From assembly GCF_023073715.1 (NCBI RefSeq), contig NZ_JADPKA010000069.1:124001-188000 (forward strand): DNA of 64,000 nt, read 5' to 3'. Within the stretch, counting starts at the first letter, position 1. Each line of letters begins with the position of its first letter. The notes under the pieces were generated by a model. That model worked only from the letters and a program-made list of their open reading frames with translations, was not told the DNA's origin and ran no database searches. Below are positions 1,443 through 64,000 of this stretch, piece by piece. This DNA is from Bradyrhizobium sp. 164 (GTDB taxonomy: Bacteria; Pseudomonadota; Alphaproteobacteria; Rhizobiales; Xanthobacteraceae). The position numbers and the translations under genes are program-made.

Positions 1443-1485
1443 GGACGTAAGCCGATGGCGTCCGGCCCAGGTGGCTGGCTAGCAG

Positions 1486-2541: not shown

Positions 2542-2553
2542 TATATATCACGC

Positions 2554-3168: not shown

Positions 3169-3183
3169 ACGACTCTTCAGGCA

Positions 3184-3224
3184 CGCACCGCAATTGGTGC
3201 GCCTATATTTGAACCAATCGGTCT
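3184..3224 (+). promoter_or_regulatory. Stem-loop and second operator-like site ahead of the exporter gene
   Basis: Between the TetR gene and the exporter there is a stem CGCACC (3184-3189) and GGTGCG (3196-3201) around a six-base loop. ACCAATCGGTCT at 3213-3224 then matches the palindrome upstream of the TetR gene with one change. Together they suggest a weak terminator or operator followed by a TetR-controlled promoter for the exporter. Confidence 0.4.
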
Positions 3225-3240
3225 TGAAAGAAAACACGCC

Positions 3241-3699: not shown

Positions 3700-3832
3700 C
3701 CACTTCGCCAACGAACTGTTCGACTATCTCGTATACTACAACAACCACAGACCCCATCAGGCCTTGGCAGGACAAACTCCCAAGGCCTTCGCCGCTACCA
3801 AGACCACCGCGATCCAATCAGCGAATTATTGA
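3697..3832 (+). mobile_element. 3' remnant of an IS transposase (integrase-core type)
   Basis: In the frame shifted by one from the exporter, the sequence encodes HFANELFDYLVYYNNHRPHQ followed by ALAGQTPKAFAA and a stop at 3830-3832. The block YYNNHRPHQAL-G-TP is the signature end of DDE integrase-core transposases of the IS3/IS481 type. Only about 45 codons remain and no inverted repeat is obvious, so this is a fragment fused to the truncated exporter, left by an insertion followed by deletion. Confidence 0.75.
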
Positions 3833-3888
3833 ACATCGACAGCAATGACGGGCAAGAATGTCCGCTCCCGAACGCGCGCTCGACCAAC

Positions 3889-3942: not shown

Positions 3943-5865
<1,923 letters not shown>

Positions 5866-5968
5866 CGATCTTCCTTCGTGGTCGCGCGGATCGCGGCCGT
5901 GATCCTTGGGCAGTTACTTTGGTCAATGCGAGGAAATCCCAAGGAATCCTCTCGGTTAGACGCATACA

Positions 5969-5997
5969 ATTTAGGTGCCGCCCCGGTCGCTGCCAAG
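5969..5997 (-). promoter_or_regulatory. Candidate RpoH (sigma-32-type) promoter of ftsH
   Basis: Read on the minus strand, CTTG (5997-5994) is followed after 18 bases by CCTAAAT (5975-5969). This is close to the alphaproteobacterial heat-shock pattern CTTG-N17/18-CYTATNT, with one mismatch. It sits about 100 bases before the ftsH start, and ftsH is a usual RpoH target. An eight-base inverted repeat (6004-6011 with 6019-6026, AGATGGGA/TCCCATCT) lies just upstream and may be an additional control site. Confidence 0.5.
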
Positions 5998-6154
5998 GGA
6001 ACGAGATGGGACTATTTATCCCATCTTAGCGCGATTCCCGCTGAAATAATGGCGCCCGAGCCGGGGTTTTTCCCGCCTGGTTAAGGTCGCCTGAGGCGCA
6101 GAGCCGAACCGGCCGGTGTCATGATCCCGACCTCATGCAGCGTTCATACACAGT

Positions 6155-7213: not shown

Positions 7214-7295
7214 GACGCGGCCCAGAAATCGTCAGCGGATGATTGCGATGTTTAGCGCAGCACCATCCGCATTGTCAGGACTCAAACGCCAGGCG

Positions 7296-8363
7296 TCAGC
7301 ACTTCACCCGCTTCTGCTCGCGATCGACCGCGGCTTTGACACCGGCCGAGGCGCGCGGATATTTGCGGCCGACCTCGCCGAGGGCGGCGCAGGCGGCCTC
7401 CTTCTCCTTCAGCGCGGCGAGCGACTGGCCGAGTCGCAGCAGGGCATCCGGCGCCTTGGCCGATTTTTCGTATTTGGTGGTGACGGCGAGGAAGGCTTCC
7501 GCGGAATCGCGATATTGCTGGCGCTGGAAGTAGCTCTCGCCGAGCCAGTATTGCGCATCGCCGAGCAGCGGGTCGCTCGGATATTTCTGCGCAAAATTCT
7601 TCATGGTCTGCTCGGCGAGCGCATAGTCCTTGCGCTGCATGTAGCCGATGCCGAGGTCGAACTCGTCGCGCGGCGTTGCCGAGGGCGGCAGCGTCGTCAG
7701 GCCAGCGCCGCCTGATGGCGCGGGATAGCCGGATTGGGCCGGCGGATAGCCGGGCTGGGCGGCCGGGGGAGCGGCCTGCTGCTGATAACGGGGGCTGGTG
7801 TTGGCAAGATCGAGCGGCTCGCCGGCACCGCGTCCGCCCGGTGCTCCTGCCGGCATAGGCTGCTGCCCACCGCCGAGCGCACGTGGCGCACCGGGCGCGG
7901 TCGGGTTCTGGTTCGGATCGAAGGCATCGCCGCGGCGGCGCGTGCCCGGTGCGCCAGGCGCCGGCTGCTCCTGAACGATCGGCGCGGGAGCCGCGATCTG
8001 CGGCTGCTCGTAATTCGGCTGCACGGCCGGTTGTTGCGGCTGCTGCTGGCGATAGCCCGGCGCGACTTGGCTGGGTGCGATCTGGGCAGGCGGCATCGCC
8101 GCGACGCTGGGCGCCTGTCCGGGCGGGGCTTGCGCGCCGCTTTCGAGCGCCCGCAGCCGCTCCTCGAGCTGGCGGTTGCGATATTGCAGCTGCTCGTTCT
8201 GGCCGGTGAGCTGGCGCAGCTGGTTCTCCAGCCGCTCGATCCGCATCTCGGGGTCGGCATCATCCGACTGCGCGAAGACCGACTGCGCAAGTGCGGGCGA
8301 GCACAAAGAGAGCAGCGCGGCAATCGCCGCGGTGCCGGTAAAGACCTTAAATCTGGATGACAT
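7296..8363 (-). CDS. cpoB: Tol-Pal system periplasmic protein CpoB (YbgF)
   Basis: The frame is open further upstream, but the ATG at 8363 has AGGG eight bases before it and begins a good signal peptide (MSSRFKVFTGTAAIAALLSL, cleaved after ALA near residue 26). The mature protein starts with a coiled coil (about 35-75, RIERLENQLRQLTGQNEQLQ) that forms the trimer and TolA-binding part. A long proline- and glutamine-rich linker follows, and then C-terminal tetratricopeptide repeats (FDLGIGYMQRKDYALAEQTM onward). CpoB links peptidoglycan synthesis to outer-membrane constriction during division. About 355 residues; the linker is longer than in E. coli. Confidence 0.93.
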   Translation of the reverse strand: MSSRFKVFTGTAAIAALLSLCSPALAQSVFAQSDDADPEMRIERLENQLRQLTGQNEQLQYRNRQLEERLRALESGAQAPPGQAPSVAAMPPAQIAPSQVAPGYRQQQPQQPAVQPNYEQPQIAAPAPIVQEQPAPGAPGTRRRGDAFDPNQNPTAPGAPRALGGGQQPMPAGAPGGRGAGEPLDLANTSPRYQQQAAPPAAQPGYPPAQSGYPAPSGGAGLTTLPPSATPRDEFDLGIGYMQRKDYALAEQTMKNFAQKYPSDPLLGDAQYWLGESYFQRQQYRDSAEAFLAVTTKYEKSAKAPDALLRLGQSLAALKEKEAACAALGEVGRKYPRASAGVKAAVDREQKRVKC

Positions 8364-8479
8364 CTTGCCCTGACGACAAAAGCGAAATGGCCTGCAACGG
8401 AACATTCGACGCGCCACACATTGAAGTGGAGTACGCCAAAAATGTGACTGGTACCAAGGGGTTTCCGTCACAGAATGCT

Positions 8480-8510
8480 GAAACGAAACCGGCGCCCGAG
8501 AGGGCGCCGG
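8480..8510 (-). terminator. Terminator downstream of pal
   Basis: CCGGCGCCC (8489-8497) and GGGCGCCGG (8502-8510) form a perfect nine-pair stem with a GAGA tetraloop. On the minus strand it is followed by TTTCGTTT, 42 bases after the pal stop, so transcription of pal probably ends or is attenuated here before cpoB. Confidence 0.8.
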
Positions 8511-8551
8511 CATAATCGAGTTCTGAAGCTGAACGGCACCTGACTGAAGCG

Positions 8552-9040
8552 TCAGGAGCTCGCGTTCAAGACGGTGACGGCGCGCCGGTTCTGCGACCAG
8601 CAGGAGATGTCGTTACAGACGGCCACCGGCCGCTCCTTGCCGTAGGAGATCGTGCGCATGCGGTTCGGATCGATGCCGCGTGAGGCGAGGAACGAACGCA
8701 CCGACTGGGCTCTCCGGGCGCCGAGCGCGATGTTGTATTCGCGGGTGCCGCGCTCGTCGGCATGACCTTCGATGGTGAAGCTGTAGCGCGGATAGGTCTG
8801 CAGCCACTGCGCCTGCTTCTCCAGGGTCACGATCGCCTGCGGGGTCAGATCGGTCTGGTCGCTCTCGAAGAACACGCGGTCACCCACGTTGACGACGAAG
8901 TCCTGCTGGCTGCCCGGCGTCGCCGCGTTGGCCATCGCATCCGTCGCAGCATTCTTGTTGGCGCAGGCGCCCATCGACAGCGCGACAGCAAGCACCGCGA
9001 CCAGCTTCAATCCCTGGAGGATACGCATAGGATGTTTCAT
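8552..9040 (-). CDS. pal: Peptidoglycan-associated lipoprotein Pal
   Basis: A 162-residue outer-membrane lipoprotein of the Tol-Pal complex. The signal sequence ends in a lipobox (ALSMGAC), giving a lipid-modified cysteine at about residue 26. The rest is an OmpA-like peptidoglycan-binding domain: VFFESDQTDLTPQAIVTLEK, FTIEGHADERGTREYNIALG and the closing SWSQNRRAVTV are all typical. Pal anchors the outer membrane to peptidoglycan and binds TolB. In this window it is separated from tolB by two unrelated genes, whereas the two are often adjacent. A terminator follows it. Confidence 0.97.
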   Translation of the reverse strand: MKHPMRILQGLKLVAVLAVALSMGACANKNAATDAMANAATPGSQQDFVVNVGDRVFFESDQTDLTPQAIVTLEKQAQWLQTYPRYSFTIEGHADERGTREYNIALGARRAQSVRSFLASRGIDPNRMRTISYGKERPVAVCNDISCWSQNRRAVTVLNASS

Positions 9041-9308
9041 TCCGGAGCCTCCACGCTCGCGTTAGTCCACTGCTGTCCGGTCTACAGGGGGTTGGTTAAG
9101 CGAACGTTCCGTCAACCTTGACGGAACCTTGCCTCAGCCAGTCAAATGCCCCCAACCAGCGAAAAGCACCCGTCATGGTTAATGGGTTGTAAATGTGGCG
9201 CAAGGGTGAAGGCAAGCGGTGCTTATGACCAGAACGCGCGCTTGCACCAGGATAGAACCCCCGCTGCCAGCGCCTGAAAACACATGAACCACAAACGAGG
9301 CGGAGGGA

Positions 9309-10049
9309 TCAGGCCTGGGCGGCCACAGCGCCGGCAACAAGAACCGGCCTGGGTGCGGCGATCCGGTGGGTGCCCCGTTCAAATAGCATCCGCCGCTCAA
9401 ACGCGCTCGAGCGCATGATCGGGAAACGCGTCAGGATCTTTTCCCGGACCTTGGGATAATTCGAGGCCATCAGGACGGCTTTCTTCGTCGGCCAGCCCGG
9501 AAATGAACGCGGCTCAGTGAGAGTCTCGGACAGGAACACGCGGCGGTAGAACGCCTGATGATCGGTCCGCACCATCGAAAGTCCGACATCGGCATTGAAA
9601 TGCTCGCAAGCTACGAAAGGCAGCCGCACCGTCAGATAGGGCAGTTCAGGGAACCGCTGCTGCATTTCGGGATCGGCAACAAATCGACACGGATCGACAA
9701 AAACCTCGCCCCGGTCCAGGCGAGGATGCAGGACGTCGCCGAACACCTCCGTGGTGTAGGACATCCGCCATTCGGAGGTCAGAACGTGGATGCGCACGGC
9801 AGCGCAAAGCTCGTCTGCGACGTAGACGCCGAAATTCCAAACGTTGGGCGCGCTATCAAAACGGTCAGTTACCCGCTGGGACTCGGACGGTGGGATCAGT
9901 CCTGCTTGCAGATAGGCGCGGTAGCGCATCCGATACAGGGTTTCATTGTCCTCCGGCGTTTCGAGGAGGCGATAGTCGATGCGATCGAACAGCGCGGCTC
10001 CGCGCGGAAGGAGCGCCGTCTGCGGTTCGGCCCCGGACTTCATCTGCAA
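9309..10049 (-). CDS. FeeM-like N-acyltransferase (GNAT/autoinducer-synthase fold)
   Basis: A 246-residue protein with the core of FeeM-type N-acyl amino acid synthases, relatives of N-acyl-homoserine lactone synthases: YRMRYRAYLQAGLIPPSES, then RFDSAPNVWNFGVYVADEL, AAVRIHVL and a GEVFVDPCRFV segment. Enzymes of this family transfer an acyl group from acyl carrier protein to an amino acid or related amine. The acyl donor and acceptor here are unknown. No LuxR-type regulator is adjacent; the upstream neighbour is a cyclic-di-GMP protein. The family assignment is fairly firm, the product is inference. Confidence 0.7.
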   Translation of the reverse strand: MQMKSGAEPQTALLPRGAALFDRIDYRLLETPEDNETLYRMRYRAYLQAGLIPPSESQRVTDRFDSAPNVWNFGVYVADELCAAVRIHVLTSEWRMSYTTEVFGDVLHPRLDRGEVFVDPCRFVADPEMQQRFPELPYLTVRLPFVACEHFNADVGLSMVRTDHQAFYRRVFLSETLTEPRSFPGWPTKKAVLMASNYPKVREKILTRFPIMRSSAFERRMLFERGTHRIAAPRPVLVAGAVAAQA

Positions 10050-10196
10050 TCTCTACGCTCCGAACAACCTCTGCGAGTAGGTAGAGATTAATGGTTCATT
10101 AACGGAATTGCAAAGACTTGAATCGGTTACGGTTAACCCCGTACGACTACGGTGATGCTGAACGAGCGGAAACGAAGGGATATTGAGAACTGGAAG

Positions 10197-12527
10197 TCAG
10201 GCGATCGATCGCGATACGGCGACCACCTGATCCTTGCCGCCGCGAATGCCGTGCGAGGCATTGAGCAATTGGCGCACCCGCACCGCCGGTACCGGCCGGC
10301 TGAACAGATAACCCTGTCCCTCGGTCACCGTACCGTCGGCACTGATCAGTTCGAGCTGCTCGTTGGTCTCGATTCCCTCGACCACGACGGACATGCCAAG
10401 GTCCGCCGACAGTCTTGCCACGCCGCGCAAAAGCGTCAGCGGCCGGTCGGCGTCGATGCCCTCCAGGAAGGAGCGGTCGATCTTCACCTTCTGCATCGGG
10501 AAATTGTGCAGATAGCTGAGGCTGGAGTAGCCGGTACCGAAATCGTCGAGCGAGATGCGCACGCCGAGCGCATGCAGTTGCGACAGGATGTCGTGCGTGA
10601 GCTGGGTGTTGCGCAGCAGCGAGGACTCGGTGATCTCGATCTCCAGCCGATGCGCCGGCAGGCCCGACACTTCGAGCGCGTAGCGGATTTCGCTCAGCAC
10701 GTCCCGCTGGTGGAATTGCTGCGGCGAGAAGTTGACGGCGACGCTGACGCCCTCCGGCCACTTCGCGCATTCCATGCAGGCGCGGCGCAGGATCCAGCGG
10801 CCGAGATCGACGATCAGGCCCATGTCTTCGGCAACCGGGATGATGTCGACCGGCGAGACCGTGCCGCGCACCGGATGATTCCAGCGCAGCAGCGCCTCGC
10901 AGGTGGTGATCTTGCCGGATTTCAGATTGACCAGCGGCTGATAGAACAGCTCGAACTCCTCGTGAGCGAGCGCCTTGCGCAGGTCGAGCTCGAGGATGCG
11001 GCGGGCCTCGACGGTCGCCGCCATCTCGTCGCGGAAGAAGCAGAAGGTGCCGCGGCCGTCGGCCTTGGCGCGGTACAGCGCCATATCGGCGTTCTTGAGC
11101 AGCGTATCGGCGCTGGTGCCATCCGGCGAGGTCAGTGCGATGCCGACGCTGGCGCCGATCTCGACCAGATGGTTGTCGATGCGATAGCGCTCGCTCAGCC
11201 GCTCGACGATACGGCGGGCCAGCGCAGCTGCGTCCTCGGGCGAGGAGAGGTTCTGCTGGAACACGACGAACTCGTCGCCGCCGAAACGGGCGACGAAATC
11301 CTCGGGGCGCAGCATCTCGCGCAGACGGTTGGCCACCGCGCACAGGAGCTGGTCACCGCAGGGATGGCCCAGCGTATCGTTGACTTGCTTGAACTGGTCA
11401 AGATCAACGAACAGCAGAGCGGATAGACGCGCTGAATTCCGCGCGACGGCGAGCAACCGCTCGATCTCGTCGCGAAAATTGACACGGTTCGGCAGCGCTG
11501 TGAGGTCATCGTAGCGAGCCAGATGGCTGATCCTGGCCTCGGCGTTGCGCCGCTCGGTGATGTCCTCGAGCAGTACCACCGCGCCGCCATCAGCCATCGG
11601 CTGGACGGTCCATGACAGCGAACGGTTCCTTCGCGGATCGGGGTCGGTGGTGATGATTTCCTTCGCCTGCGCGGTTTCGATGTCGGCAATAATCAGGTCG
11701 CCGCTCGCGGCCGATATCGATCCCGCTTCGACGCATGCGGCGACGACGCCGCGCACGCTCGTGCCGTTCTGGGCGAGATTGTCGGGCAGGTCCATCATCG
11801 CGCCAAAGCGGTGGTTCATCACCGCGAGTTGGCCGTCGATGCGAAACATGCAGAGTCCGTGCGGCATGTTGTTGAGGGCCGTGTCGAACTGGCCGGCGAG
11901 CGCAGCCTCGCGCTCGCGTGCGATAACCGCGCGCAGAAATATCTTGTGCAGATTGCCGGAGAGCCGCATGACCGAGAGCAGGAACGCGGCGCACACGACG
12001 GACATTGCCACGTAATAGGGCGTGCCGCGCAGCGCCAGCGCGACCACAGCCGGGCCGAATATCAAGGTGGCTTGCAGACGAAATATCGACTGCCGTCCGT
12101 AAGCTCTCCCCGCTCCTCCGGCCACGATTCCGGTGGTGACCGAGAGGGCAATCATGTGAGCGATGGCGTCGTCATTGCTCAGCAGGGTCGTGGAGCACCA
12201 TAGACCAATCACGACGGCCTGGATGAGCGCTCCGACTTGGTAGCGCATTTGCAGATTTGCCGCTTGTTCCGCGCTCAGGACCGATTTTCGGGCCTGGTAC
12301 CGGCTCAAATCGAAGGCCCGTATAGCTCCTGCGAGAATGAGAAGAGGAACAAATCCCCAAATCAGCGTCTGTCCCGTCTTCAGCGCCGTCAAGGATGCCG
12401 CGAACGCCGAGAAGATGATGCCGGTAAGCACCGTGCCAGGAGCCTCGAACAGCGAATCGGTCAGCGCCGCCGAAATCGTCGGCGAGGCCTGCTCCTCAGG
12501 TTCTCCGCTCTGGCTTGCGAACTGCAT
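10197..12527 (-). CDS. Membrane-bound GGDEF/EAL cyclic-di-GMP protein
   Basis: A 776-residue signalling protein. The N-terminal 200 residues hold about five to six hydrophobic helices, followed by a PAS-like region (about 212-325, MPHGLCMFRIDGQLAVMNHR). Next is a diguanylate cyclase domain with an intact GGDEF at 416-420, preceded at the usual distance by an RPED inhibitory site (407-410). Last is a phosphodiesterase domain with EALLRW at 544-549 and DDFGTGYSSLSYL further on. Both catalytic signatures look intact, so it may make and degrade cyclic-di-GMP; the net activity cannot be told. It sits between tolB and the FeeM-like gene. Confidence 0.95.
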   Translation of the reverse strand: MQFASQSGEPEEQASPTISAALTDSLFEAPGTVLTGIIFSAFAASLTALKTGQTLIWGFVPLLILAGAIRAFDLSRYQARKSVLSAEQAANLQMRYQVGALIQAVVIGLWCSTTLLSNDDAIAHMIALSVTTGIVAGGAGRAYGRQSIFRLQATLIFGPAVVALALRGTPYYVAMSVVCAAFLLSVMRLSGNLHKIFLRAVIAREREAALAGQFDTALNNMPHGLCMFRIDGQLAVMNHRFGAMMDLPDNLAQNGTSVRGVVAACVEAGSISAASGDLIIADIETAQAKEIITTDPDPRRNRSLSWTVQPMADGGAVVLLEDITERRNAEARISHLARYDDLTALPNRVNFRDEIERLLAVARNSARLSALLFVDLDQFKQVNDTLGHPCGDQLLCAVANRLREMLRPEDFVARFGGDEFVVFQQNLSSPEDAAALARRIVERLSERYRIDNHLVEIGASVGIALTSPDGTSADTLLKNADMALYRAKADGRGTFCFFRDEMAATVEARRILELDLRKALAHEEFELFYQPLVNLKSGKITTCEALLRWNHPVRGTVSPVDIIPVAEDMGLIVDLGRWILRRACMECAKWPEGVSVAVNFSPQQFHQRDVLSEIRYALEVSGLPAHRLEIEITESSLLRNTQLTHDILSQLHALGVRISLDDFGTGYSSLSYLHNFPMQKVKIDRSFLEGIDADRPLTLLRGVARLSADLGMSVVVEGIETNEQLELISADGTVTEGQGYLFSRPVPAVRVRQLLNASHGIRGGKDQVVAVSRSIA

Positions 12528-12769
12528 TTGTATCTGTACGCGCGTCCTGTTTGGCGCGTAGTTTTACTCAACCCAGATGAAGCCTTTCTGAGGGAACATC
12601 GTTAAAGTGGAGTTGTTTTTCGGCAATGGCGAACCTATTTCTGCTGATATTTCAAGCTACTAGGCAAGCCTTGCCGAGCGCAAGGCGAAGGAAAGCTTGC
12701 TTTCCTCAGCGAAGCCGAAAAAATCTGCCCGCATTTTCGACAACGTTGCGCGTCTGACCGCGTAACTCT

Positions 12770-14137
12770 TTATTGGCCCGCCGTCGAAGACAATAGCGGC
12801 GACCACGCCGGGTCTGAGGCGAAGCCTGGCGTCGGCACCTTCAGCTCGTTGCGCCCCGAAATGTCGACGCTGTACAGCGACGGTCCGCTGTTGCCGCCGG
12901 GGTCGCGAAAGAACATCAGCACGCGGCCGTTCGGCGAGAAGGTCGGGCCTTCGTTGTGGAAGCCGGAGGTGAGCAGCCGCTCGCCGGAGCCGTCCGGCTT
13001 CATGACGCCAATCGCGAACTGCCCGCCGCCTTGCCTGGTGAAGGCGATGTAATCGCCCTTCGGCGACCACACGGGTGTCGAATAGCTGGCGTTGGTGTCG
13101 TCCTTGGAGAAGGAGATGCGCTGCGCCTGCCCACCGCCCGCCGCCATCACATAGATCTGCGACCTGCCGCCGCGATCGGATTCGAAGCAGATCCGGCTGC
13201 CATCTGGAGAATAAGAAGGAGAAGTGTCGATCGCCGGCGTGTCGGTGAGGCGCGTGGTCGAGCGCGAGCGCAGATCCATCACGAACAGGTTGGAATTGCC
13301 GCCCTGCTGCAGGCTCATGATGACGCGCTGGCCGTCCGGCGAGAAGCGCGGCGCAAAGGTCATGCCGGGGAAATTGCCGACGATCTCGCGCTGGCCGGTC
13401 TCGATGTTGAAGAGATAGACCTTCGGATCGCCCTGGCCGAACTCCATGTAGGTGATCTCTTGCGAGTTGGGCGAGAACCGCGGCGTCAGCACGAGGTCGG
13501 AGCCGCGGGTCAGGTAGCGGACATTGGCGCCGTCCTGATCCATCATCGCAAGTCGCTTGACGCGGCGCTCCTTCGGCCCGGTTTCGTCCACGAACACCAC
13601 GCGGCTGTCGAAATAGCCCTTCTCGCCAGTCATCCGCTCGTAGATCTGATCGGAGATGATGTGGGCGATGCGGCGCCAATATTCCGGCGAGGTGAAATAT
13701 TGCTGGCCGGCGAGCTGTTGGCCGGAGACGACGTCCCACAGGCGGAATTCGGCCTTGAGCCTTCCGTCGGGCTGCCGCGTCATGCGGCCGGTGACGAGGG
13801 CCTGCGCGTTGATGGTCTTCCAGTTCTGGAATTGCGGCGCGACGTCGATGTTGCTGATGCGCTCGATGAAGGCGGCCTGGTCGATCGGCGCGAACAGCCC
13901 CGAGCGCTTCAGGTTGTTGGTGATCACCTGCGTGACGCCGTTGCCGACGTCGCCGTCGGCGGGCGAGCCCGGCACGAAGTTGGTGATCGCGATCGGGATC
14001 GGCTGGAACGCCGTGGGATCGATGCGAAGGCGGGGCTCCTGGCCCTGCGCGCAGGCCCGGCCGCCCCCGAGCATCGCGAGCGTCGATCCGGTCAGGGTCA
14101 TGAAGCGGCGGCGGTTCATCGATCGGACGTCATTCAT
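12770..14137 (-). CDS. tolB: Tol-Pal system translocation protein TolB
   Basis: A periplasmic beta-propeller protein of about 455 residues that joins Pal to TolA. The ATG at 14137 is preferred ([18 protein letters not shown]); an ATG at 14119 inside the same segment is possible. The signal region contains RRRFMTL, a twin-arginine-like motif, then a short hydrophobic stretch ending in ACAQ. The N-terminal TolB domain ([20 protein letters not shown]) is followed by propeller repeats with the recurring FSPDG/YSPDGS element. It starts 23 bases after tolA and has no clear Shine-Dalgarno site, so it is probably translated from the tolQRAB message. Confidence 0.96.
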
Positions 14138-56381: not shown

Positions 56382-56753
56382 TCACGAAATCAGATCGGCC
56401 TTCATCAAGGTCCGGATCGATTTCGGAATCGGCTGCGCGCGACCGCCGCTGATGAAGGCGACGCGCACTTCCGCTTTCACCAGCACGTCCTCAGCCCGGC
56501 GCACCTCCTGCGCCAGCATGATGGAAGCGCCCTTCACCGCGATCGGCCAGGTCACGACATCGAGCACGTCGTCCATCCGCGCGGGCTTCAAAAAGTCCAG
56601 ATGCATCGAGCGCACCACGAAGGCGAAGCCGGCGCCGTCGGTCTCGGGCTGCTCGAACAGCGCCTGCTGCTCGGCGCCCATCAGCCGCAGATGATTGGTC
56701 CGCCCGCGCTCCATATAGCGCAGATAATTGGCATGATAGACGATGCCGGAGAA
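56382..56753 (-). pseudogene. YbgC-type acyl-CoA thioesterase gene with its 5' end lost
   Basis: The sequence from about 56753 encodes FSGIVYHANYLRYMERGRTN and continues through the hot-dog domain to AFISGGRAQPIPKSIRTLMK. The family normally begins about 25 residues earlier and reads EDTD before this point. Here the codons before FSGI read DVGKPE, so similarity stops exactly there, and no ATG lies upstream before a TAG. The first ATG (56714) would give only 110 residues without the catalytic Asp. A diverged, apparently intact copy lies directly beyond. The native gene was probably cut by insertion of the DNA to the right. Confidence 0.65.
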
Positions 56754-56834: not shown

Positions 56835-57275
56835 CTATGCTCCTCCCATGGCGAACCGCAGCCCCTTCGGGATACGTTGCGCTTTTCCGCCTGAGATAAA
56901 CGCCGCGCGCACGCGGGCCGTGACCAAAAGATCGTCCCCGCGCCTGCACTCCTGCAGCAGGGTAATCGACGCCCCCCTTACCTCTTCTGGAACCGTGACA
57001 ACTTCAAGTAGGTCGTCCAGGATTGCTGGCTTTAGAAAATCGATACTCATCGAACGGACTACGAAAGCAAAGCCTGGCGCATCTTCCTGCGCTTCTTTGA
57101 GGAGCTCTTGCTGATCCGTTACGAGCAGACGCAAGTAATTTGTTCTGCCGCGTTCCATGAAGCGCAAGAAATTCGCGTGATAAACAATCTGGCCGGCGTC
57201 CGTATCTTCGAAATAGATACGGACCTGCATATGATGGCGGCCATCGCGAATTTCGCCGTCAAGAGATACTGTCAC
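56835..57275 (-). CDS. YbgC-family acyl-CoA thioesterase (4HBT hot-dog)
   Basis: A 146-residue hot-dog thioesterase. RIYFEDTDAGQIVYHANFLR contains the catalytic Asp, then MERGRTNYLRLLVTDQQELL, FAFVVRSMSIDFLKPAILDD and FISGGKAQRIPKGLRFAMGG. It starts with a GTG at 57275 and has no strong ribosome site. Codon choice is visibly more A/T-rich than in the truncated neighbour, to which it is similar over most of its length. YbgC hydrolyses short acyl-CoA and is often encoded in tol operons; here it is far from tolQ. It probably came with the island and supplements the broken copy. Confidence 0.75.
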   Translation of the reverse strand: MTVSLDGEIRDGRHHMQVRIYFEDTDAGQIVYHANFLRFMERGRTNYLRLLVTDQQELLKEAQEDAPGFAFVVRSMSIDFLKPAILDDLLEVVTVPEEVRGASITLLQECRRGDDLLVTARVRAAFISGGKAQRIPKGLRFAMGGA

Positions 57276-57732
57276 AGGGGGATTTCTCTTATTGCACTTC
57301 TCGCACTTCGGAGCCGATTGTCTTGCATAGAGGCACCTTCCTCAGCAAGCGCCATCGCTTTGGGTTTGAACTTTGCTTGGGATGCACCTAGACTCTTGAT
57401 TGTAGGGACACGCAACACCCAGAGCGACGCGATGCCGGCCGATATGCCACAACGCTTCAATAGCTCTTGTAGCTCGGCGAGCGTGATATCCGGCTTCGCT
57501 GTCACCGCGTCTAAGATCAATTGTGCGTGTGCTTAGATGCGCTGCGATTTGCGGTCCCCGCCCTGACGTTTAGGAACGACGTCGCCACTTCCTCGAGGCG
57601 ACTGCGCCAACGGATCGCGCTGGCCGCGCTGATACCAAAACGCTCAGCAGCCCGTCGACAGGACAAGCCACCGTCAATCGCGGCTACCACCCTCTGGCGA
57701 AGATCAACTGAAAACGCGCGCTGGTCATACAT
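57272..57732 (-). pseudogene. IS630-type transposase remnant
   Basis: The N-terminal helix-turn-helix part is clear from the ATG at 57732 (MYDQRAFSVDLRQRVVAAID, then CRRAAERFGISAASAIRWRS). The frame then shifts. In another frame it resumes as RKSQRI, an in-frame TAA, then AHAQLILDAVTAKPDITLAE and LKRCGISAGIASLW, the usual next part of IS630 transposases. The catalytic domain is missing. So the gene carries at least one frameshift, one stop and a deletion. Confidence 0.75.
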
Positions 57733-58411
57733 GCTGACCTCCTTCGTCAGCATGTCCCTTGAATTTGACTCGTGCCGCTTTGGGAATCCCCACCGATTCA
57801 TTCCGGTCGGAAAATGCTCTAATTGCCGCCGCTCATGTGCTGGTCAAAGAAAACGGTGAGTATCGGTTGAGTGAATTGAACAAGGACAGTTCGTAGCCAG
57901 TACCATGAATGTTTTCTAACTGTGCTTTCGGAGTATCAGGGCGCCTCCTTGGAGCGGGGCGAAAGCCCAACTTCCGAGCCGGTGTTGCTTGTTGTTCCCG
58001 CGGTTTATTCGTCGGTTTGTGGGCGCGGTTTGATTGCGATGATGACGATCGGATCCTGCCGATCGAGCCTACAACGGGCGGCCTAAAGTGTGCTCCTATT
58101 TCCCCTATCCAACTTCTTTCTTGCCGTGATCAAGCGGAACGAGCATCCGGTGATCGCGCCTCCGTGGAGCTGCACGAGCTAGGTAGAAGCCGCTAACGTG
58201 ATTGACAGGTAAATGCACCCCTTACGAAGAACGATCTTAGTACTCGGATGGGATGCCCATCTTCACAAATAGCGCAATGGCCAGCACGGAACGATAGCAG
58301 ATAGCCGTCTTAGAAATAGCTTTGCGCGGCGACTGGGGGCCACCGCGCAGCAGGACCACGTGCTTGTCGAGCCGATCGTTGAAGTCCAGGCCGGCGGTGA
58401 AAACGCATTCT
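57733..58411. other. Gene-poor stretch inside the island edge
   Basis: I recognise no gene in these bases. Base composition is lower in GC than in the core region. A GGGC-GAAA-GCCC hairpin lies near 57957-57968. Short frames (plus 57909-58196; minus, ending at 58237) show no similarity that I know. Remnants of mobile elements are likely, but I cannot name them. The operon terminator of the MFS gene should be just below 58412, yet no clear one is visible. Confidence 0.35.
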
Positions 58412-59659
58412 CTAGGATCGCTCGACGTCAATGCCATCCTGCGTGGCCTTCCGGCCACCAATATCCAGCATCTTGCTGCGAAAACGGTACAGCCACATCG
58501 CACCCAGACCATAAAGGGCGGCAATTCCCGCGAAAGCGAACGTGTTGTGAAGCTCCGCGCTGCCGAGCACAGCGCCAACAAAATTGCCGAGTGCTTCTCC
58601 GAGACCCATACCGATGGCGTTGATGCCTAGCAAGGCTAGGTGATCCCTTCCCGGGGTATTCTGGACAAGCAACACCGACAACGACGGCAGGGCGACAATC
58701 TCCACGACCGTCAACAATGCGACGGCGAGGTAGAGCGTGAACAGGTTCACGAACCCTGATAGCAGCGCGAAACACGCCAGGACCAGGACCGCCGACAAGA
58801 TCAGCGACCCGACGTCGTCGACATGCGCGCGCTCGAGCGCCTTCATCAGCGGCATCGATGCCCCTACCACCAAGGCGGCATTGAGGCCGGCAATCGTCCA
58901 AACGATTTCCGGGCCGGCCAACAAGCGGCCTAGCATGATCGGCGCAAACGAAAAGATCTGTGCCAGGGCGAACCACGTGAAGGCAGTCGCCACGAATACC
59001 AAGCGAAGGTCGGACCGCGTTGCACTGTGCAGCAGCGACTTCCACCACTTGCCGCCGCGGTCCAGTACTGGCAGCTCGTTCCCCAAAAAGGCATGGCAGA
59101 CTAACCCACCCGACACCATCACCAAGCCGGTGACGAGAAAGGGGGCGCTCGGCGCCATTTGCACGTACAGCAGGCTCGAGAGCAACGGTCCGAGCGCGGC
59201 AGCGATATTCGTCCCCACGGCGAGCTTCACTAGCATCAAACGGAGAGATTGATCCTCGCGCAGGCGGACCGTAATTACGCGCAGCAGCAAGCTACACGAC
59301 CCGTAAGCGGTGCCGACCATAAACAGTCCGAGCGCGGTCCCGACAAACGCGGCGCTCTCCGCCACGATGATATAGCCCGCCCCCATCACGAGATAGGTTG
59401 TCGTCAGGGAATAACGCGTGGGAATGCGGTCCAGTAGTGGAGCGAATAAGGCGCGCGACGCTCGGCCGGAAGCGGACAGGAGCAGCAACAGAGTAGCGAC
59501 CTGAGCCGCCGAGAGCGATCGGTCGAGGAGATAGATGCCGAGCACAGAGAGCGGCGCAAAGTAGCCGTAGTTATTGAGAAAATTCTGGGCGAACACGTTC
59601 CAGAACATACGCTGCGTGGGCTTCGGTTTGAGCATGATTGCGCGCGGGCTGTTCATCAT
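58412..59659 (-). CDS. MFS transporter, probable product exporter
   Basis: A 415-residue major facilitator with about 12 helices: MFWNVFAQNFLNNYGYFAPL, the loop FAPLLDRIPTRYSLTTTYLV, GTALGLFMVGTAYGSCSLLL, a central charged loop, and LTVVEIVALPSLSVLLVQNT. The ATG at 59659 overlaps the stop of the ATP-grasp gene by four bases, so it is translated as part of the operon. As the last gene of a ligase-containing cluster, it most likely exports the product or gives self-protection. No family member of known substrate is recognised. Confidence 0.85.
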   Translation of the reverse strand: MMNSPRAIMLKPKPTQRMFWNVFAQNFLNNYGYFAPLSVLGIYLLDRSLSAAQVATLLLLLSASGRASRALFAPLLDRIPTRYSLTTTYLVMGAGYIIVAESAAFVGTALGLFMVGTAYGSCSLLLRVITVRLREDQSLRLMLVKLAVGTNIAAALGPLLSSLLYVQMAPSAPFLVTGLVMVSGGLVCHAFLGNELPVLDRGGKWWKSLLHSATRSDLRLVFVATAFTWFALAQIFSFAPIMLGRLLAGPEIVWTIAGLNAALVVGASMPLMKALERAHVDDVGSLILSAVLVLACFALLSGFVNLFTLYLAVALLTVVEIVALPSLSVLLVQNTPGRDHLALLGINAIGMGLGEALGNFVGAVLGSAELHNTFAFAGIAALYGLGAMWLYRFRSKMLDIGGRKATQDGIDVERS

Positions 59660-60894
59660 TGAACGGTGATGGCGACCGCCATGATCATGCGCTCGAGCCG
59701 GTCCTTAACTTCGGTGGCGCTCGCCCCGGTGGCAAGCACATGACCAACGCGGTCGAACGAGTGGCGGACGGGCTTCACGGTGTCACCGACTTTGATCAAC
59801 AGCGCGGCACCGGCATAGCCAGGCATTTCGGGCAGACGATCATATCCGGTGATTTCCGTCACCCTGCCGGCGGGCGGGACGAAGTATCGGATGCCGGCGG
59901 CTCCGCAGTGGGCCGCGGGAAGCATCACCACGCCGGCATCAGCGCACAGCATCTGGGCAAACACGCTGCCGTAATAAGCGATCCCGGTCACGTGCTGTGT
60001 CAGGTGCGTAATGTAGTCGCCTCCGGGTCGGGAGTGAATTTCCCCCATGACGATCTCGCCGGCATCGCAAGCCCAGAACTCCGCATGAAACATGCCGAAA
60101 GTCAGACCGACGGAATGCACGGCGCTCTGCACGACCGTGATCGCGCGCTCACACAAAGCAGGCGGAAGATCGGCCGGCGCCACATGGCCGCACTCGACGA
60201 AATTGCCACCGCCGATCACGAATTTTTGCGTCAAGCTCAAGACCCTCGGCAAGCCACGGACACACAAGCCCTCCGCGCTGAACTCCCGGCCCTCGACGAA
60301 CGATTCGAGCAAGAAGGGCCGCTCGCTTGCCGGCCTGAGCTGCGCAAGCGCAGTGGCAAGAGCCGTCGCGCTATCCACCAGAAAGACGTTCTCGCTGCCA
60401 TACCCGATCATCGGCTTAAGGATGAGTTTGCGATGCCGGCGCGAGAGCTCGGCGAACGCCTGATCGATTGCCTCGCCGGATCGGCACAGCCTGGCTTCCG
60501 GCTGGGCAAATCCGGCCGCCCGCAAGGTGTCTCGGCAGACAAACTTGTTAGTGGTGCACTCATGCGCACGCTCGCTGGGGCCATTGAATCCAAAGCGGCG
60601 AACCAGCGCGGCGATCGCCGGCTGCGCTTTTTCTTTGAAGCTGAATGCTCCGGCAAGAAGCTCGCGTCGGGGATATTTGCCAACCCACCTGAGACAGCCG
60701 CTCACATCCTCGAAGTCGAGAGGGTGGACCTCATCGGCGAGATCATGCAATTGAATGGCCTGCTCGAGACGCTTGGGCGTGTCCGTCAACACCACCCGCA
60801 AGCCTTGCGCCCGCGCCTGATCATAGAGGTGACGGGACTGAATCTCGCTCTCTCCGCCCAAGACCAGCAGTGCCTTCTTCCGCATCGTCATCAC
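59656..60894 (-). CDS. ATP-grasp ligase (carboxylate-amine/thiol ligase type)
   Basis: A 412-residue ATP-grasp enzyme. An N-terminal pre-ATP domain begins KKALLVLGGESEIQSRHLYD. The ATP-binding lysine lies in KLILKPMIGYGSENVFLVDS, and the metal site is GEIHSRPGGDYITHLT. The fold and length resemble L-amino acid ligases and relatives that join a carboxylate to an amine through an acyl phosphate. The ATG at 60894 overlaps the dehydrogenase gene by about 74 bases; later ATGs at 60891 and 60885 are possible starts. It probably makes one amide bond of the cluster product. Confidence 0.85.
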   Translation of the reverse strand: MMTMRKKALLVLGGESEIQSRHLYDQARAQGLRVVLTDTPKRLEQAIQLHDLADEVHPLDFEDVSGCLRWVGKYPRRELLAGAFSFKEKAQPAIAALVRRFGFNGPSERAHECTTNKFVCRDTLRAAGFAQPEARLCRSGEAIDQAFAELSRRHRKLILKPMIGYGSENVFLVDSATALATALAQLRPASERPFLLESFVEGREFSAEGLCVRGLPRVLSLTQKFVIGGGNFVECGHVAPADLPPALCERAITVVQSAVHSVGLTFGMFHAEFWACDAGEIVMGEIHSRPGGDYITHLTQHVTGIAYYGSVFAQMLCADAGVVMLPAAHCGAAGIRYFVPPAGRVTEITGYDRLPEMPGYAGAALLIKVGDTVKPVRHSFDRVGHVLATGASATEVKDRLERMIMAVAITVQ

Positions 60895-62017
60895 ATCTGT
60901 CCATTGTTATCTCGACACCTCGACGCTCGAGCCAGTCGAGCATGACCGGCGCTATCTGCGGGGTGATAATGGTCTCCGGATAGTGAAATCCGCCAACGGC
61001 TTTTCCGGCGCCCGTCAGCCAGTTGACCAGGAACACCACGGGCAAGCAGGTGGCCAGAGCCATCGAGCGCACGTCGACGCGGTCGGTGAAGGTGAGCCGC
61101 AAACCCTGCACAGACCGTCGCCCGTGCCGACTTCCGGCGAGATCGATTGCCAGAAGCGTCTTTGTCTGTTCGTTCTCCGCCAAGCCGAAGGTGCGCTGGG
61201 TGGCCCGCTCGAAAAGCTGCTTTGGGGTGAGGCCCGTATTTTGGTCCACGGCATCCTCGGCCAATACGCCGAGTTGATCGAGCAATGCGACCAGTTCGAC
61301 ATATCTGGCCCAACGCAATGTGCGTTGGTCGGCATCGACACCCGGCCGCGACAATTTCGGATGCTCCGAGAGCCGCGGCTGCATCCCGTCATGCCAGTGC
61401 TCGAGCACCCCGATGCCGGGCCAAGCGAGTTGTTGAACATCGGAAAACCGCGGAACGACGCAAAGGGCGCCATCGCGGATGCAATAGGCGTCGCGCTTGG
61501 CGAGGGGGAGGTGCGAAGTGCCGAAGAGTCTTTTGTAGCCGAGAGGATTGGCCGGGCGTGGCACTACGATCCCACCGCAGCAGATACGAAGGGACTGCAC
61601 CTCCTCAGTGGATTCCAGCAGATAGCCCGCCAGGATCTCCGTCAGCCCCGGCTCCAGCCCGCAGGGCAGAACCGTCGCAAGACTCGGAGCTTGGATCAGC
61701 GCTTGCTGCACGCGTGGCACGTCCTCGGCAGCAGGCCGGCTGATACTCACCAGCAAACCACGTGCAGCGTGGCTCGCTAGGCTCTCGATCACACCCAGCG
61801 TGACCGGCCAAGTGGCGGCACAGATCACGACGGGGGCGAGTTCTGCCTGCTGCGGCTGGTCGGTGCACAATATCTCACATTTCCATGCCTCGCGCACAGC
61901 CGTGAGCGCGCTCATATCGCGGTCGATGAGGCGGACCGTCCAGTGCGGAAAGGCGTCGCGCAGCAGCGCCGCCATTCCCCTGCCCATCGCACCAGCGCCT
62001 ATGACGTCCGTCTGCAT
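60821..62017 (-). CDS. Saccharopine dehydrogenase-like amino acid oxidoreductase
   Basis: A 398-residue NAD(P)-dependent enzyme. The Rossmann motif is MQTDVIGAGAMGRGMAALLR. VLPCGLEPGLTEILAGYLLE and LRICCGGIVVPRPANPLGYK match saccharopine dehydrogenase and lysine dehydrogenase families, as does the C-terminal region with GFHYPETIITPQIAPVMLDW. Such enzymes form or cleave secondary amines, or oxidise lysine-type amines to imines. It could prepare or modify the amino acid building block. The start is 3 bases before the stop region of the upstream ATP-grasp gene. It overlaps the next ATP-grasp gene extensively. Confidence 0.82.
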   Translation of the reverse strand: MQTDVIGAGAMGRGMAALLRDAFPHWTVRLIDRDMSALTAVREAWKCEILCTDQPQQAELAPVVICAATWPVTLGVIESLASHAARGLLVSISRPAAEDVPRVQQALIQAPSLATVLPCGLEPGLTEILAGYLLESTEEVQSLRICCGGIVVPRPANPLGYKRLFGTSHLPLAKRDAYCIRDGALCVVPRFSDVQQLAWPGIGVLEHWHDGMQPRLSEHPKLSRPGVDADQRTLRWARYVELVALLDQLGVLAEDAVDQNTGLTPKQLFERATQRTFGLAENEQTKTLLAIDLAGSRHGRRSVQGLRLTFTDRVDVRSMALATCLPVVFLVNWLTGAGKAVGGFHYPETIITPQIAPVMLDWLERRGVEITMDRCDDDAEEGTAGLGRRERDSVPSPL

Positions 62018-62020
62018 GTT

Positions 62021-63259
62021 TCACTCGAGGGCGAAGACTGGGGTGATCGTCTCCGATACCCAATCGAGGTGCTTCGTGAGCAGCGCTTGGCTCGGCGCGG
62101 TGCTGATCACCGCGATCAGACGTTGAAGACGGAAATCGCTCGGCGGAAGTACAATGTGTGTACCAATCGATGTTTCGACGATCGCCTGCTCGACCCAAGG
62201 GTGATCGAGAACCGCCTCGAGGCCGCGGTAGCCGAGCAGCCGCCCTTCCTGTTTGGCCAAGACGTAATGGATCCCGGCCACCCGCTGCGGCGCGGGCGGA
62301 GGCAGAGGCGCCGTGCCCACCGCAATGCGAGCAAGGTTTTCGTAGAAGTCATAGTGCAACGCAAGCGGGACCAGATGCGACGCGATGTAATCGCCTCCCG
62401 GCCGGGCAGCAACCTCAATGAGCGCGAACTGCGGGCCGTCGTACTTGCCTTCGAGGTGGAAGGATGCATTGTCCAGGCACAGCGCCAGCACGTAATCTTT
62501 GGTCTTTGCTTCAATCATGCTGCGCATCTCACCCTCGAGGTCGGCAGGGAAAATATGCCGCACCTCCAGGCAATAAGGATCCGAGGTGAGCTTGTGCGTG
62601 ATCCCGACAACGGTGACTTCACCGCTGCAAACGTACCCTTCCACACTCACCTCCTGCCCGCCGATATAACGTTCCGCCAGGAACGTAAGCGTTTCCCGTC
62701 GCAAAGTCGGGTCGTACGACGGATTGGCGATCTTCTTGCTAGTGGAATGAAAGACATTCAGGTCGGCAGGCTCGCGAAGGAGGTAGATTCCGGTGCTGCC
62801 CGAGGCGTTCACCGGTTTCACGATGACCGGGAGTCCCGCCACACTGATGAACTCTTCCAGATCGCTATCATTCTGCAAAAGGCGGTGCGTGAGGCCGGAA
62901 ACCGACTGAGTTCGCTCGCGCAGTATCGATTTGTCCCGCACCGCGGACACGGATGCGTGCGGCAACCCGGGCAGCCGCAATTTCGCGGCAAGGATGGCGC
63001 AGGCTTCCACAGCAGTTTCCGTAAAGCAGACCACACCGGCAATTTGGATACACTTTCTGATCTCCTCGACGGCGCTCTCGAGCGAGACAAGGCTTGCGGG
63101 ATTACATTGGCGCCACTCGTCGACGTAGCAGGCAAGTTCCGGTGGCAGCGGCTGACCAAGCACAGCGACGTGGTATCCGAGCCGATGTGCCGCTTCGAAT
63201 GCACGAATGCTTTCTCGTATGAGTCGGCGATAATTGATATAGAGGAGAAACTCCGTCAT
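62021..63259 (-). CDS. Second ATP-grasp ligase
   Basis: A 412-residue ATP-grasp enzyme, distinct from the one at 59656. The ATG at 63259 overlaps the stop of the synthetase-like gene (ATGA) and starts MTEFLLYINYRRLIRESIRA; the longer frame runs over that gene. Motifs are FTETAVEACAILAAKLRLPG, PVIVKPVNASGSTGIYLLRE for ATP and FALIEVAARPGGDYIASHLV for metal. The shared ARPGGDYI-type signature groups both ligases with amino-acid and dipeptide ligases. Two such enzymes imply two amide or ester steps, or a tripeptide-like product. Confidence 0.85.
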   Translation of the reverse strand: MTEFLLYINYRRLIRESIRAFEAAHRLGYHVAVLGQPLPPELACYVDEWRQCNPASLVSLESAVEEIRKCIQIAGVVCFTETAVEACAILAAKLRLPGLPHASVSAVRDKSILRERTQSVSGLTHRLLQNDSDLEEFISVAGLPVIVKPVNASGSTGIYLLREPADLNVFHSTSKKIANPSYDPTLRRETLTFLAERYIGGQEVSVEGYVCSGEVTVVGITHKLTSDPYCLEVRHIFPADLEGEMRSMIEAKTKDYVLALCLDNASFHLEGKYDGPQFALIEVAARPGGDYIASHLVPLALHYDFYENLARIAVGTAPLPPPAPQRVAGIHYVLAKQEGRLLGYRGLEAVLDHPWVEQAIVETSIGTHIVLPPSDFRLQRLIAVISTAPSQALLTKHLDWVSETITPVFALE

Positions 63260-64000
63260 ACAGCCCAGCCTCCGGTGTCGAAGGATCGCCCCGCCGGAAC
63301 CCATTGCAAAGCGTGGTTCAGATATGGCGGTTCTCGAATGCCAAGGCGCCCCAGGAGGGCGGTGCAGAGCCCGGGCATCACCGGCCAGGCAAGCGTCGCC
63401 CACAGCCGCAGGCCGGCAACGCTGAGGGCGCAGGCGGCGCGCTCGATGCCCGGGTGATAGCGCGCGCCAAGCGCTTCTGTTGCGAATCCATCAAGGTCGT
63501 GAAGCAAGCGGTCGATTAGCTCCGCGATCCGCCGCGGGTCGAATCCTTCGACCGAGAATAGCCGCCGGCCCTCTTGCTGACGCTCGCAAAGCTGTTGATA
63601 GAATGCGCGATGCAGGCGTTCCCAAGTGCCGGCCTCCGGCACCGTCCCGCGGTGACGCGTTTCGACCGACTGGCTGATGTGATGAATGACGGATGCCAGC
63701 AGGCCGCGGCGCCGTTCGATCCAGTCAAAGGCCTCACGAAAGCTAAAGCTCGTCGGGGCAACCGATGGACGGGTATGGCAGACATATAGGCGCAGCCAGT
63801 CGGCCGGAATTCCCTGGCGGGTGAGATCGTCGGCGTATATGACATGGCCCCGCGAGGTGGAGAGCTTACGGCCGTCAAGCTGGTAGAATTCGTTGCCAAA
63901 AAAACCCACGATGCGAAATCTGCTCGCGTCGTAAAGGTGGAGCAGGATTGGGAAGGTGATGCAGCGCAGATACGCGTTGTCGGAGCCAAAAAAGAGCACG
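63256..64000 (-). CDS. Methionyl-tRNA synthetase-like protein (C-terminal part; gene continues past the window)
   Basis: The gene begins beyond the right edge; about 248 residues are visible. FFGSDNAYLRCITFPILLHL, VGFFGNEFYQLDGRKLSTSR with GH following, and WLRLYVCHTRPSVAPTSFSF match the late catalytic domain of methionyl-tRNA synthetase; KLSTS corresponds to KMSKS. A helical domain in the place of the anticodon-binding domain follows (FDPRRIAELIDRLLHDLDGF), without the usual C-terminal tail. Placement as the upstream member of a ligase operon suggests amino acid activation for biosynthesis or a resistant synthetase, and not the housekeeping MetG. Neither can be decided without the missing half. 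Confidence 0.75.
   Translation of the reverse strand, partial: VLFFGSDNAYLRCITFPILLHLYDASRFRIVGFFGNEFYQLDGRKLSTSRGHVIYADDLTRQGIPADWLRLYVCHTRPSVAPTSFSFREAFDWIERRRGLLASVIHHISQSVETRHRGTVPEAGTWERLHRAFYQQLCERQQEGRRLFSVEGFDPRRIAELIDRLLHDLDGFATEALGARYHPGIERAACALSVAGLRLWATLAWPVMPGLCTALLGRLGIREPPYLNHALQWVPAGRSFDTGGWAV

What the first reader, a model, noticed from the sequence alone, without database searches (positions are those of the whole stretch)
58412..64000. Uncharacterised ligase operon: MetRS-like protein, two ATP-grasp enzymes, saccharopine-dehydrogenase-like enzyme and MFS exporter
Five minus-strand genes are packed with stop/start overlaps of four bases (63256/63259 and 59656/59659), a 3-base gap, and a 74-base overlap. 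Known: ATP-grasp enzymes form amide bonds, aminoacyl-tRNA synthetase relatives activate amino acids in some natural product pathways, and MFS proteins export products. Inference: the operon makes and secretes a small peptide-like compound from a reduced or N-alkylated amino acid. I know of no characterised pathway with this exact set. It lies at the edge of what looks like a genomic island, and more genes must lie to the right of the window.
Basis: partly seen in the sequence, partly recalled or inferred. Interest (0 to 1): 0.85.

Follow-up and report, generated by a model that had tools for sequence, protein, structure and literature searches.

The report
Hydrazine-making gene operon in Bradyrhizobium
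These genes most likely let a soil bacterium of the root-nodule genus Bradyrhizobium join two nitrogen atoms, turning lysine and glutamate into a reactive hydrazine amino acid that is tied into a small peptide-like molecule and pumped out; the nitrogen-joining step is already known from antibiotic makers, but this compact version and its product are not.

Summary
The 'MetRS-like' ORF is the tail of a 631-aa cupin+MetRS protein, and a lysine/ornithine N-hydroxylase gene overlaps it by four bases. That pair marks a hydrazine synthetase (N-N bond) operon, a kind predicted in 2010 and since characterised (Spb40, PyrN). The closest solved structure is PyrN's MetRS domain with a glutamyl-adenylate analogue (Z 44.4; next 33.4). 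As with PyrN/PyrL, a saccharopine-dehydrogenase-like (SDH) gene is adjacent. The synthetase lies in a clade (support 100/100) where the MetRS pocket Asp is lost and the pocket His is Arg: 13 of 13 SDH-only rows, 0 of 90 others. Those 13 are one clade, and one divergent SDH-linked case examined later lacks the Arg. Best reading: Lys + Glu give an 'aza-saccharopine', then 2-hydrazinoglutarate, which two L-amino-acid-ligase-type ATP-grasp enzymes join to amino acids and the MFS protein exports. All six genes are present in the same order in the seven carriers found among 265 genomes of the genus, in differing mobile contexts, under purifying selection (one species pair). New variant of a known kind; product unknown.

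The parts
63256..64000 (-). 3' part of the cupin-MetRS hydrazine synthetase gene (CupMet); the whole gene is 63256-65151 in window numbering (L002:7256-9151), 631 aa; pocket residues L156 and R396, zinc-ligand positions D30, H32, E36, H73 of the protein
   Evidence: Pfam Cupin_2 (33.5 bits, cut-off 27.2) and tRNA-synt_1g (160 bits); structure closest to PyrN. The hydroxylase gene (L002:9148-10410, about 65148-66410) lies wholly beyond the window.
62021..63259 (-). LigA, ATP-grasp ligase of L-amino-acid-ligase type
   Evidence: ATP-grasp_4 67.4 bits; LAL_C2 25.5 bits, under its cut-off of 29.4; BL00235 E 2.6e-16; clade with ATP-grasp genes of other SDH-linked clusters, 100/99
60821..62017 (-). 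Saccharopine-dehydrogenase-like enzyme (PyrL-like by context)
   Evidence: Sacchrp_dh_C 56.4 bits, cut-off 31; profile matches 3abi (5.1e-22, uncharacterised) and saccharopine reductase 1e5l (2.9e-13); tree
59656..60894 (-). LigB, second ATP-grasp ligase of L-amino-acid-ligase type; start GTG 60894 or ATG 60891 or 60885
   Evidence: LAL_C2 69.4 bits, ATP-grasp_4 52.8 bits, both over cut-off; BL00235 E 1.9e-10
58412..59659 (-). MFS transporter, presumed exporter
   Evidence: MFS_1 56 bits, cut-off 33.4; direction of transport is inference

Best explanation
A six-gene hydrazine (N-N bond) biosynthesis operon of the glutamate type; its first gene and half of its second lie just right of the window. 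Steps: (1) the hydroxylase makes N6-hydroxylysine [inferred from family and neighbourhood]; (2) the MetRS domain adenylates L-glutamate, N6-hydroxylysine attacks it, and the zinc cupin rearranges the ester to a Lys-NH-NH-Glu hydrazine, an 'aza-saccharopine' [shown in print for PyrN and for the Rhodococcus enzymes; inferred here from sequence, clade, structure and pocket residues]; (3) the saccharopine-dehydrogenase-like enzyme oxidises the lysine side and frees 2-hydrazinoglutarate [suggested in print for PyrL; the aldehyde co-product and the step here are inferred]; (4) LigA and LigB join amino acids to it through a carboxyl or the hydrazine nitrogen, giving a small hydrazino-peptide [inference]; (5) the MFS protein exports it [inference].
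For: Cupin + MetRS in one protein and an adjacent Lys/Orn N-monooxygenase; zinc-ligand positions H32, E36, H73 invariant in 21 aligned proteins and D30 as in RHS1 (ligands named in PMC8664883); HIGH- and KMSKS-type motifs. Predicted structure of the B. niftali orthologue (pLDDT 85.5) matches 9l8v, PyrN C-terminal domain with glutamyl-sulfamoyl-adenosine, Z 44.4, rmsd 2.1, 520 residues; next row Z 33.4. Clade 100/100 with the Rhodococcus enzyme whose own three genes gave the Lys-Glu hydrazine in vivo (PMC8664883); L027 carries the same RHS1 accession. Arg at position 396 and loss of the 'GxD' Asp in 13 of 13 SDH-only rows and 0 of 90 others; PyrN has both changes. SDH neighbour of saccharopine reductase type. 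LigA clade shared with ligases beside the SDH in L027, L036, L132. Six genes syntenic and intact in 7 carriers; omega 0.18-0.25.
Against: No enzyme was assayed. The 13 Arg rows are one clade with near-copies, so the association is one event. L133, an SDH-linked but very divergent MetRS, lacks the Arg. An SDH gene beside a hydrazine synthetase need not act on the hydrazine: tri23 and tri24, SDH-like genes of the triacsin cluster, could be disrupted without loss of triacsin (PMC10445470, passage), though such genes lie in another SDH clade. LigA's LAL_C2 match is under the cut-off. The hydroxylase's Lys against Orn preference was not tested; its only NCBIfam hit is a histamine N-monooxygenase model far below cut-off. 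The two ligation steps have no direct evidence.
Confidence: 0.72

Rival explanations
1. A hydrazine synthetase operon, but the activated partner is not glutamate (glycine, alanine, serine, tyrosine or another), so the freed building block is a different hydrazino acid.
For: Family members with glycine, serine, alanine and tyrosine are in print (PMC8664883); specificity cannot be proved from sequence; L133 shows that an SDH neighbour and the Arg can come apart.
Against: Clade, pocket residues and structure point to the PyrN/Rhodococcus glutamate group; no Spb39-type oxidase was found by my profile in the Bradyrhizobium loci.
Confidence: 0.13
2. The operon makes a cyclised hydrazine (pyridazine, piperazate-like or pyrazole) rather than an open hydrazino-peptide, with the ATP-grasp enzymes activating a carboxyl for ring closure as part of a C-nucleoside-like route.
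For: LigA is in one clade with the ligase beside the SDH of L132, whose cluster also has adenylosuccinate synthetase, PfkB and Rieske genes and looks C-nucleoside-like (my judgement, recalled comparison).
Against: None of those extra families appeared in the flanking ORFs tested; a C-glycoside synthase was not looked for by a model of its own.
Confidence: 0.12
3. A modified Lys-containing dipeptide without an N-N bond, as first proposed for this gene context in 2010.
For: Proposed from gene context in PMC2922099; lysine N-hydroxylases also serve siderophores (same paper).
Against: The family members described as assayed in PMC8664883 and in the part of PMC11705231 that I read form hydrazines; the zinc ligands and catalytic Glu are conserved here.
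Confidence: 0.03

Closest known systems
Pyrazomycin early pathway: PyrM, PyrN, PyrL
   Same: N6-lysine hydroxylase, cupin+MetRS synthetase and saccharopine-dehydrogenase-like gene; PyrN's MetRS domain is the closest solved structure and has the same two pocket changes
   Different: Only about 35% identical to PyrN's domain; gene order differs from L132, the most similar cluster read; no nucleoside-type genes in the ORFs tested; second ligase LigB
Rhodococcus jostii RHA1-type cluster (RHS1; L027)
   Same: Hydroxylase, MetRS, cupin, SDH, two ATP-grasp genes and MFS all present; Glu use shown in vivo in PMC8664883
   Different: Cupin is a separate gene; extra genes (aminomutase, AMP-binding, carrier protein, luciferase-like monooxygenase, GNAT); scattered on both strands; product unknown there too
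Mesorhizobium operons (L025/L091, L073, L087, L088, L092)
   Same: CupMet with the Arg, SDH and MFS; hydroxylase in three of the five distinct loci by my profile (L087, L091, L092)
   Different: No ATP-grasp match in these loci; CupMet only 27-28% identical
Spb40/Tri28/AzsN glycine-type hydrazine synthetases
   Same: Cupin+MetRS protein with lysine hydroxylase
   Different: Linked to a Spb39-type FAD oxidase giving hydrazinoacetic acid; pocket Asp kept, and His (28), Tyr (3), Ser (1) or Leu (1) at the Arg position in 33 oxidase-linked rows
Bacilysin-type layout (BacD ligase and exporter; recalled)
   Same: A modified amino acid joined by an L-amino-acid-ligase ATP-grasp enzyme, with an MFS exporter; LigA matches BacD at E 1.5e-6
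   Different: Different reactive amino acid, two ligases; likeness of layout only, bac genes not searched for

Membership tests
Cupin/MetRS hydrazine synthetases | Cupin and MetRS paralogue, fused or adjacent | tested here: met
   Fused, 631 aa
Cupin/MetRS hydrazine synthetases | Cupin zinc ligands (D/H)-x-H-x3-E and a later H | tested here: met
   D30, H32, E36, H73 (ligands named in PMC8664883)
Cupin/MetRS hydrazine synthetases | Adjacent lysine N-hydroxylase gene | tested here: met
   PF13434 at E 1.1e-97, 4-base overlap; lysine preference itself not tested
Cupin/MetRS hydrazine synthetases | Forms an N-N bond | not testable with these tools
   Needs an assay
Glutamate-type (PyrN/PyrL) subgroup | Saccharopine-dehydrogenase-like gene adjacent and no Spb39-type oxidase | tested here: met
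   SDH hit, no oxidase hit, in L002 and L031-L035
Glutamate-type (PyrN/PyrL) subgroup | Synthetase groups with enzymes shown to use Glu | tested here: met
   Clade 100/100 with the Rhodococcus enzyme; PyrN itself was not in the tree but is the top structure match and shares the pocket changes
Glutamate-type (PyrN/PyrL) subgroup | Activates L-glutamate | not testable with these tools
   Needs an assay
Hydrazinoacetic acid (Spb39/40, Tri27/28) subtype | Spb39-type FAD oxidase gene adjacent | tested here: not met
   No oxidase-profile match in L002 and L031-L035
Pyrazomycin/formycin C-nucleoside cluster | Nucleoside-assembly genes (C-glycoside synthase, purine-type enzymes; recalled) | tested here: inconclusive
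   None of the L132 extra families in the flanking ORFs tested, but no C-glycoside synthase model was run and flanks were read in part
L-amino-acid-ligase type ATP-grasp enzymes | ATP-grasp_4 plus LAL_C2 domain | tested here: met
   LigB over both cut-offs; LigA over the ATP-grasp cut-off, but LAL_C2 at 25.5 bits, under 29.4, so met in full for LigB only

The most novel reading that the evidence does not exclude
A ribosome- and NRPS-free pathway in nitrogen-fixing Bradyrhizobium that makes a bacilysin-like hydrazino-peptide: 2-hydrazinoglutarate, or its six-membered lactam (a 6-oxo-piperazate), joined to amino acids by two ligases and exported as a disguised glutamate antimetabolite against rivals or as a signal to the host plant.
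Probability: 0.33. Interest if true: 0.72.

Novelty: new variant of a known kind. Interest (0 to 1): 0.52.

Why it matters
N-N bond natural products are rare and often potent, and a six-gene glutamate-type pathway can be expressed whole in a laboratory host to find its product. The two pocket positions offer a simple sequence test for which hydrazine synthetases use glutamate. It also suggests hydrazine chemistry in nitrogen-fixing bradyrhizobia, for which my paper searches found no report (held open-access library only).

Tried and rejected
Symbiosis regulation: no nod box and no exact TGT-N10-ACA in L002; a -24/-12-like site at L002:10627-10642 sits in sequence that is not shared by L033-L035. 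No support. Link to symbiosis: 7 of 7 carriers have nifH against 158 of 265 genomes of the genus; by hand about 0.025 by chance if genomes were independent, which they are not; in the one-contig carrier G1081 the operon and nifH are about 1 Mb apart. Weak.

Decay or chance: rejected by synteny and omega (one species pair, Nei-Gojobori script of mine, gene starts approximate).

More tests of the Arg rule. SDH-profile search of 392 Streptomyces genomes gave two cases: L132 has the Arg, L133 does not. Synthetase-profile searches of 21 genomes around Salinispora and of 396 Actinomycetota gave four loci beyond the centre genome's own oxidase-type one, of which I read three or fewer per search: L142 (no SDH, Tyr), L143 (no SDH; my motif pattern did not match it) and L144 (4.7 kb only, ordinary-MetRS-like, His). 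So ForJ of Salinispora arenicola was not obtained. Rhizobium NZLR1 (L141) is an SDH beside an amino acid transporter with no synthetase.

Rows left out of the 103: L001 and L003 (window copies), L004 and L023 (weak, ordinary-MetRS-like), L076 and L025 (copies of L029 and L091), L022 (score under 190). The 57 'neither' rows include ordinary or near-ordinary MetRS genes of the genus. Classes rest on score limits that I chose (oxidase 180, SDH 150). The tree used 45 chosen rows, not all. The genome-contig scan kept the best 80 of 422.

Trees: long branches (L133, L027, L098, L036) are flagged; the join of LigB with a Glycomyces ORF (99/97) may be false. The structure list shows no cupin rows of its own, so the cupin rests on Pfam and ligand residues. 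The 2024 family phylogeny paper is not held; reviews and passages searched for the role of the ATP-grasp gene gave nothing.
Full report
What is there. The five ORFs of the finding exist as described and belong to the stated families. The window ends inside the operon. The window is G000:C23:124001-188000 and the contig runs 6,656 bases further. There the MetRS-like ORF proves to be the C-terminal part of a 631-aa protein with a Cupin_2 match at residues 20-85 and a MetRS match at 119-475; it overlaps by four bases a gene for a Lys/Orn N-monooxygenase (PF13434, E 1.1e-97). The likely hydroxylase start is the ATG of MYDVIGIG at L002:10410: the stretch from there is shared by all six Bradyrhizobium sequences aligned, the stretch before it is not. 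Gene order: hydroxylase, cupin-MetRS (CupMet), LigA, SDH, LigB, MFS.

What kind of thing it is. A cupin, a MetRS paralogue and a lysine N6-hydroxylase together were described in 2010 as a predicted peptide-making system, with ATP-grasp and saccharopine dehydrogenase genes in some neighbourhoods (PMC2922099: abstract, sections 6 and 8, and part 1 of section 7). Members have since been shown to be hydrazine synthetases: the MetRS domain adenylates an amino acid, N-hydroxylysine attacks it, and the zinc cupin rearranges the ester to an N-N bond (PMC8664883, passages; PMC11705231, passages and part 1 of section 15). The zinc-ligand positions named there are filled here by D30, H32, E36 and H73.

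Which amino acid. Three lines point to glutamate. First, the neighbour is a saccharopine-dehydrogenase-like enzyme: its profile matches 3abi (uncharacterised, E 5.1e-22) and then saccharopine reductase 1e5l (E 2.9e-13). Saccharopine is a Lys-Glu secondary amine and the Lys-Glu hydrazine is its aza-analogue; PyrL was suggested to turn that hydrazine into 2-hydrazinoglutaric acid (PMC8664883). Second, in a MetRS tree of 45 chosen proteins CupMet lies in a clade (100/100) with the Rhodococcus enzyme and with Streptomyces L132; 12 of the 13 oxidase-linked rows lie together elsewhere, and the 13th, L064, among non-Arg rows. The R. jostii genes gave the Lys-Glu hydrazine in vivo (PMC8664883), and L027 carries the same RHS1 accession. 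Third, in 103 aligned proteins the position that holds His in ordinary MetRS (aligned; H301 of E. coli by recalled numbering) is Arg in 13 of 13 rows with SDH and no Spb39-type oxidase, and in 0 of 90 others; the Asp of 'GxD' is lost in the same 13 and kept in the 90. PyrN has both changes. The predicted structure of the B. niftali orthologue (pLDDT 85.5) matches 9l8v, the PyrN C-terminal domain with glutamyl-sulfamoyl-adenosine, at Z 44.4 over 520 residues, rmsd 2.1; the next row, an ordinary MetRS, has 33.4.

Limits. The 13 rows are six Bradyrhizobium, five Mesorhizobium, one Rhodococcus and one MAG contig, and their representatives form one clade, so the association is one event. Clusters found by SDH alone in 392 Streptomyces genomes gave two further cases: L132 has the Arg; L133, a very divergent MetRS with an unsure SDH placement, does not. 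SDH-like genes also sit in triacsin and azaserine clusters, where disrupting tri23 and tri24 did not affect triacsin (PMC10445470, passage); such genes in the loci compared form a separate SDH clade.

The ligases. LigA falls in a clade (100/99, 11 rows) with the ATP-grasp genes beside the SDH in L132, L027 and L036, plus one Glycomyces ORF; it looks like a frequent partner of the glutamate-type pathway, though no ATP-grasp match was found in the Mesorhizobium loci. LigB lies elsewhere; among the loci compared it is found in Bradyrhizobium only, apart from a long-branch Glycomyces ORF joined to it (99/97, flagged as possibly false). Both match the L-amino acid ligase BL00235. That they join amino acids to 2-hydrazinoglutarate is inference.

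Distribution and setting. The six genes are in the same order in B. niftali, B. yuanmingense, WSM1743, B. nanningense and B. manausense (L031-L035). L036, a 31% GC contig labelled Burkholderiales MAG, has CupMet (42%), LigA (54%) and SDH (38%), no LigB match, no hydroxylase on its 6.3 kb, and a 352-aa hydrophobic ORF that I judge transporter-like by eye but my MFS profile did not match. The SDH profile found, in 385 alphaproteobacterial genomes, only the window's own and one weak match at 1e-20. Shared flanks with B. niftali end about 265 bases left and 520 bases right of the operon; the L033-L035 and G1081 loci share no flank at E 1e-10. In G1081 the operon lies between an IS21-type gene and an integrase-like gene; in B. 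manausense it is 0.8 kb from a tRNA-Phe. GC is 0.54-0.62 in the 2.5-kb bins from 57.5 to 70 kb, against 0.61-0.67 to the left. This fits a laterally moved cassette. Omega is 0.18-0.25 for all six genes between this genome and B. nanningense.

Novelty. The chemistry and core gene set are known. Searches for a description in Bradyrhizobium found none in the held open-access library, which lacks most subscription papers, the 2024 family phylogeny among them. The compact six-gene form with two amino acid ligases, and no NRPS, PKS or nucleoside genes in the flanking ORFs tested, is a new variant of a known kind with an unknown product.

Noticed in passing
L025/L091 (Mesorhizobium amorphae pM0123d), L073, L087, L088, L092: A second rhizobial lineage of glutamate-type operons (Arg present) with MFS, SDH and CupMet, and a hydroxylase in some, without any ATP-grasp match.
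   Followed up: partly
L030 (Mesorhizobium MesoLj131c2) 5691-12943: A hydrazine synthetase with hydroxylase (His, not Arg) about 1.8 kb from a nif-specific ferredoxin gene; its sister in the tree is Sinorhizobium terangae L107.
   Followed up: no
L133 (G738:C1:1318001-1338000): Streptomyces cluster with hydroxylase, separate cupin, SDH and a very divergent MetRS lacking the Arg; may use another amino acid.
   Followed up: no
L036:148-2430: The CupMet ORF has an extra N-terminal stretch that resembles the end of a GNAT acetyltransferase by eye, on a 31% GC contig labelled Burkholderiales MAG.
   Followed up: no
window 56382-56714 and 56835-57275: Two neighbouring 4HBT thioesterase ORFs, the first apparently shortened: a possible duplication.
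   Followed up: no
window 57517-57801; L002:12055-12780 and 12873-13766: IS630-type HTH fragment left of the operon; a Hypoth_Ymh gene and a type I restriction HSDR_N-like ORF right of it.
   Followed up: no
L098 (Glycomyces xiaoerkulensis) 3-3841: Overlapping ATP-grasp ORF matches near an oxidase-linked synthetase with Ser at the Arg position; one match lies in the LigA clade.
   Followed up: no
L141 (Rhizobium sp. NZLR1 plasmid p2) 8632-9795: A related saccharopine dehydrogenase-like gene beside amino acid ABC transporter genes and an Lrp regulator, with no hydrazine synthetase: probably catabolic.
   Followed up: partly
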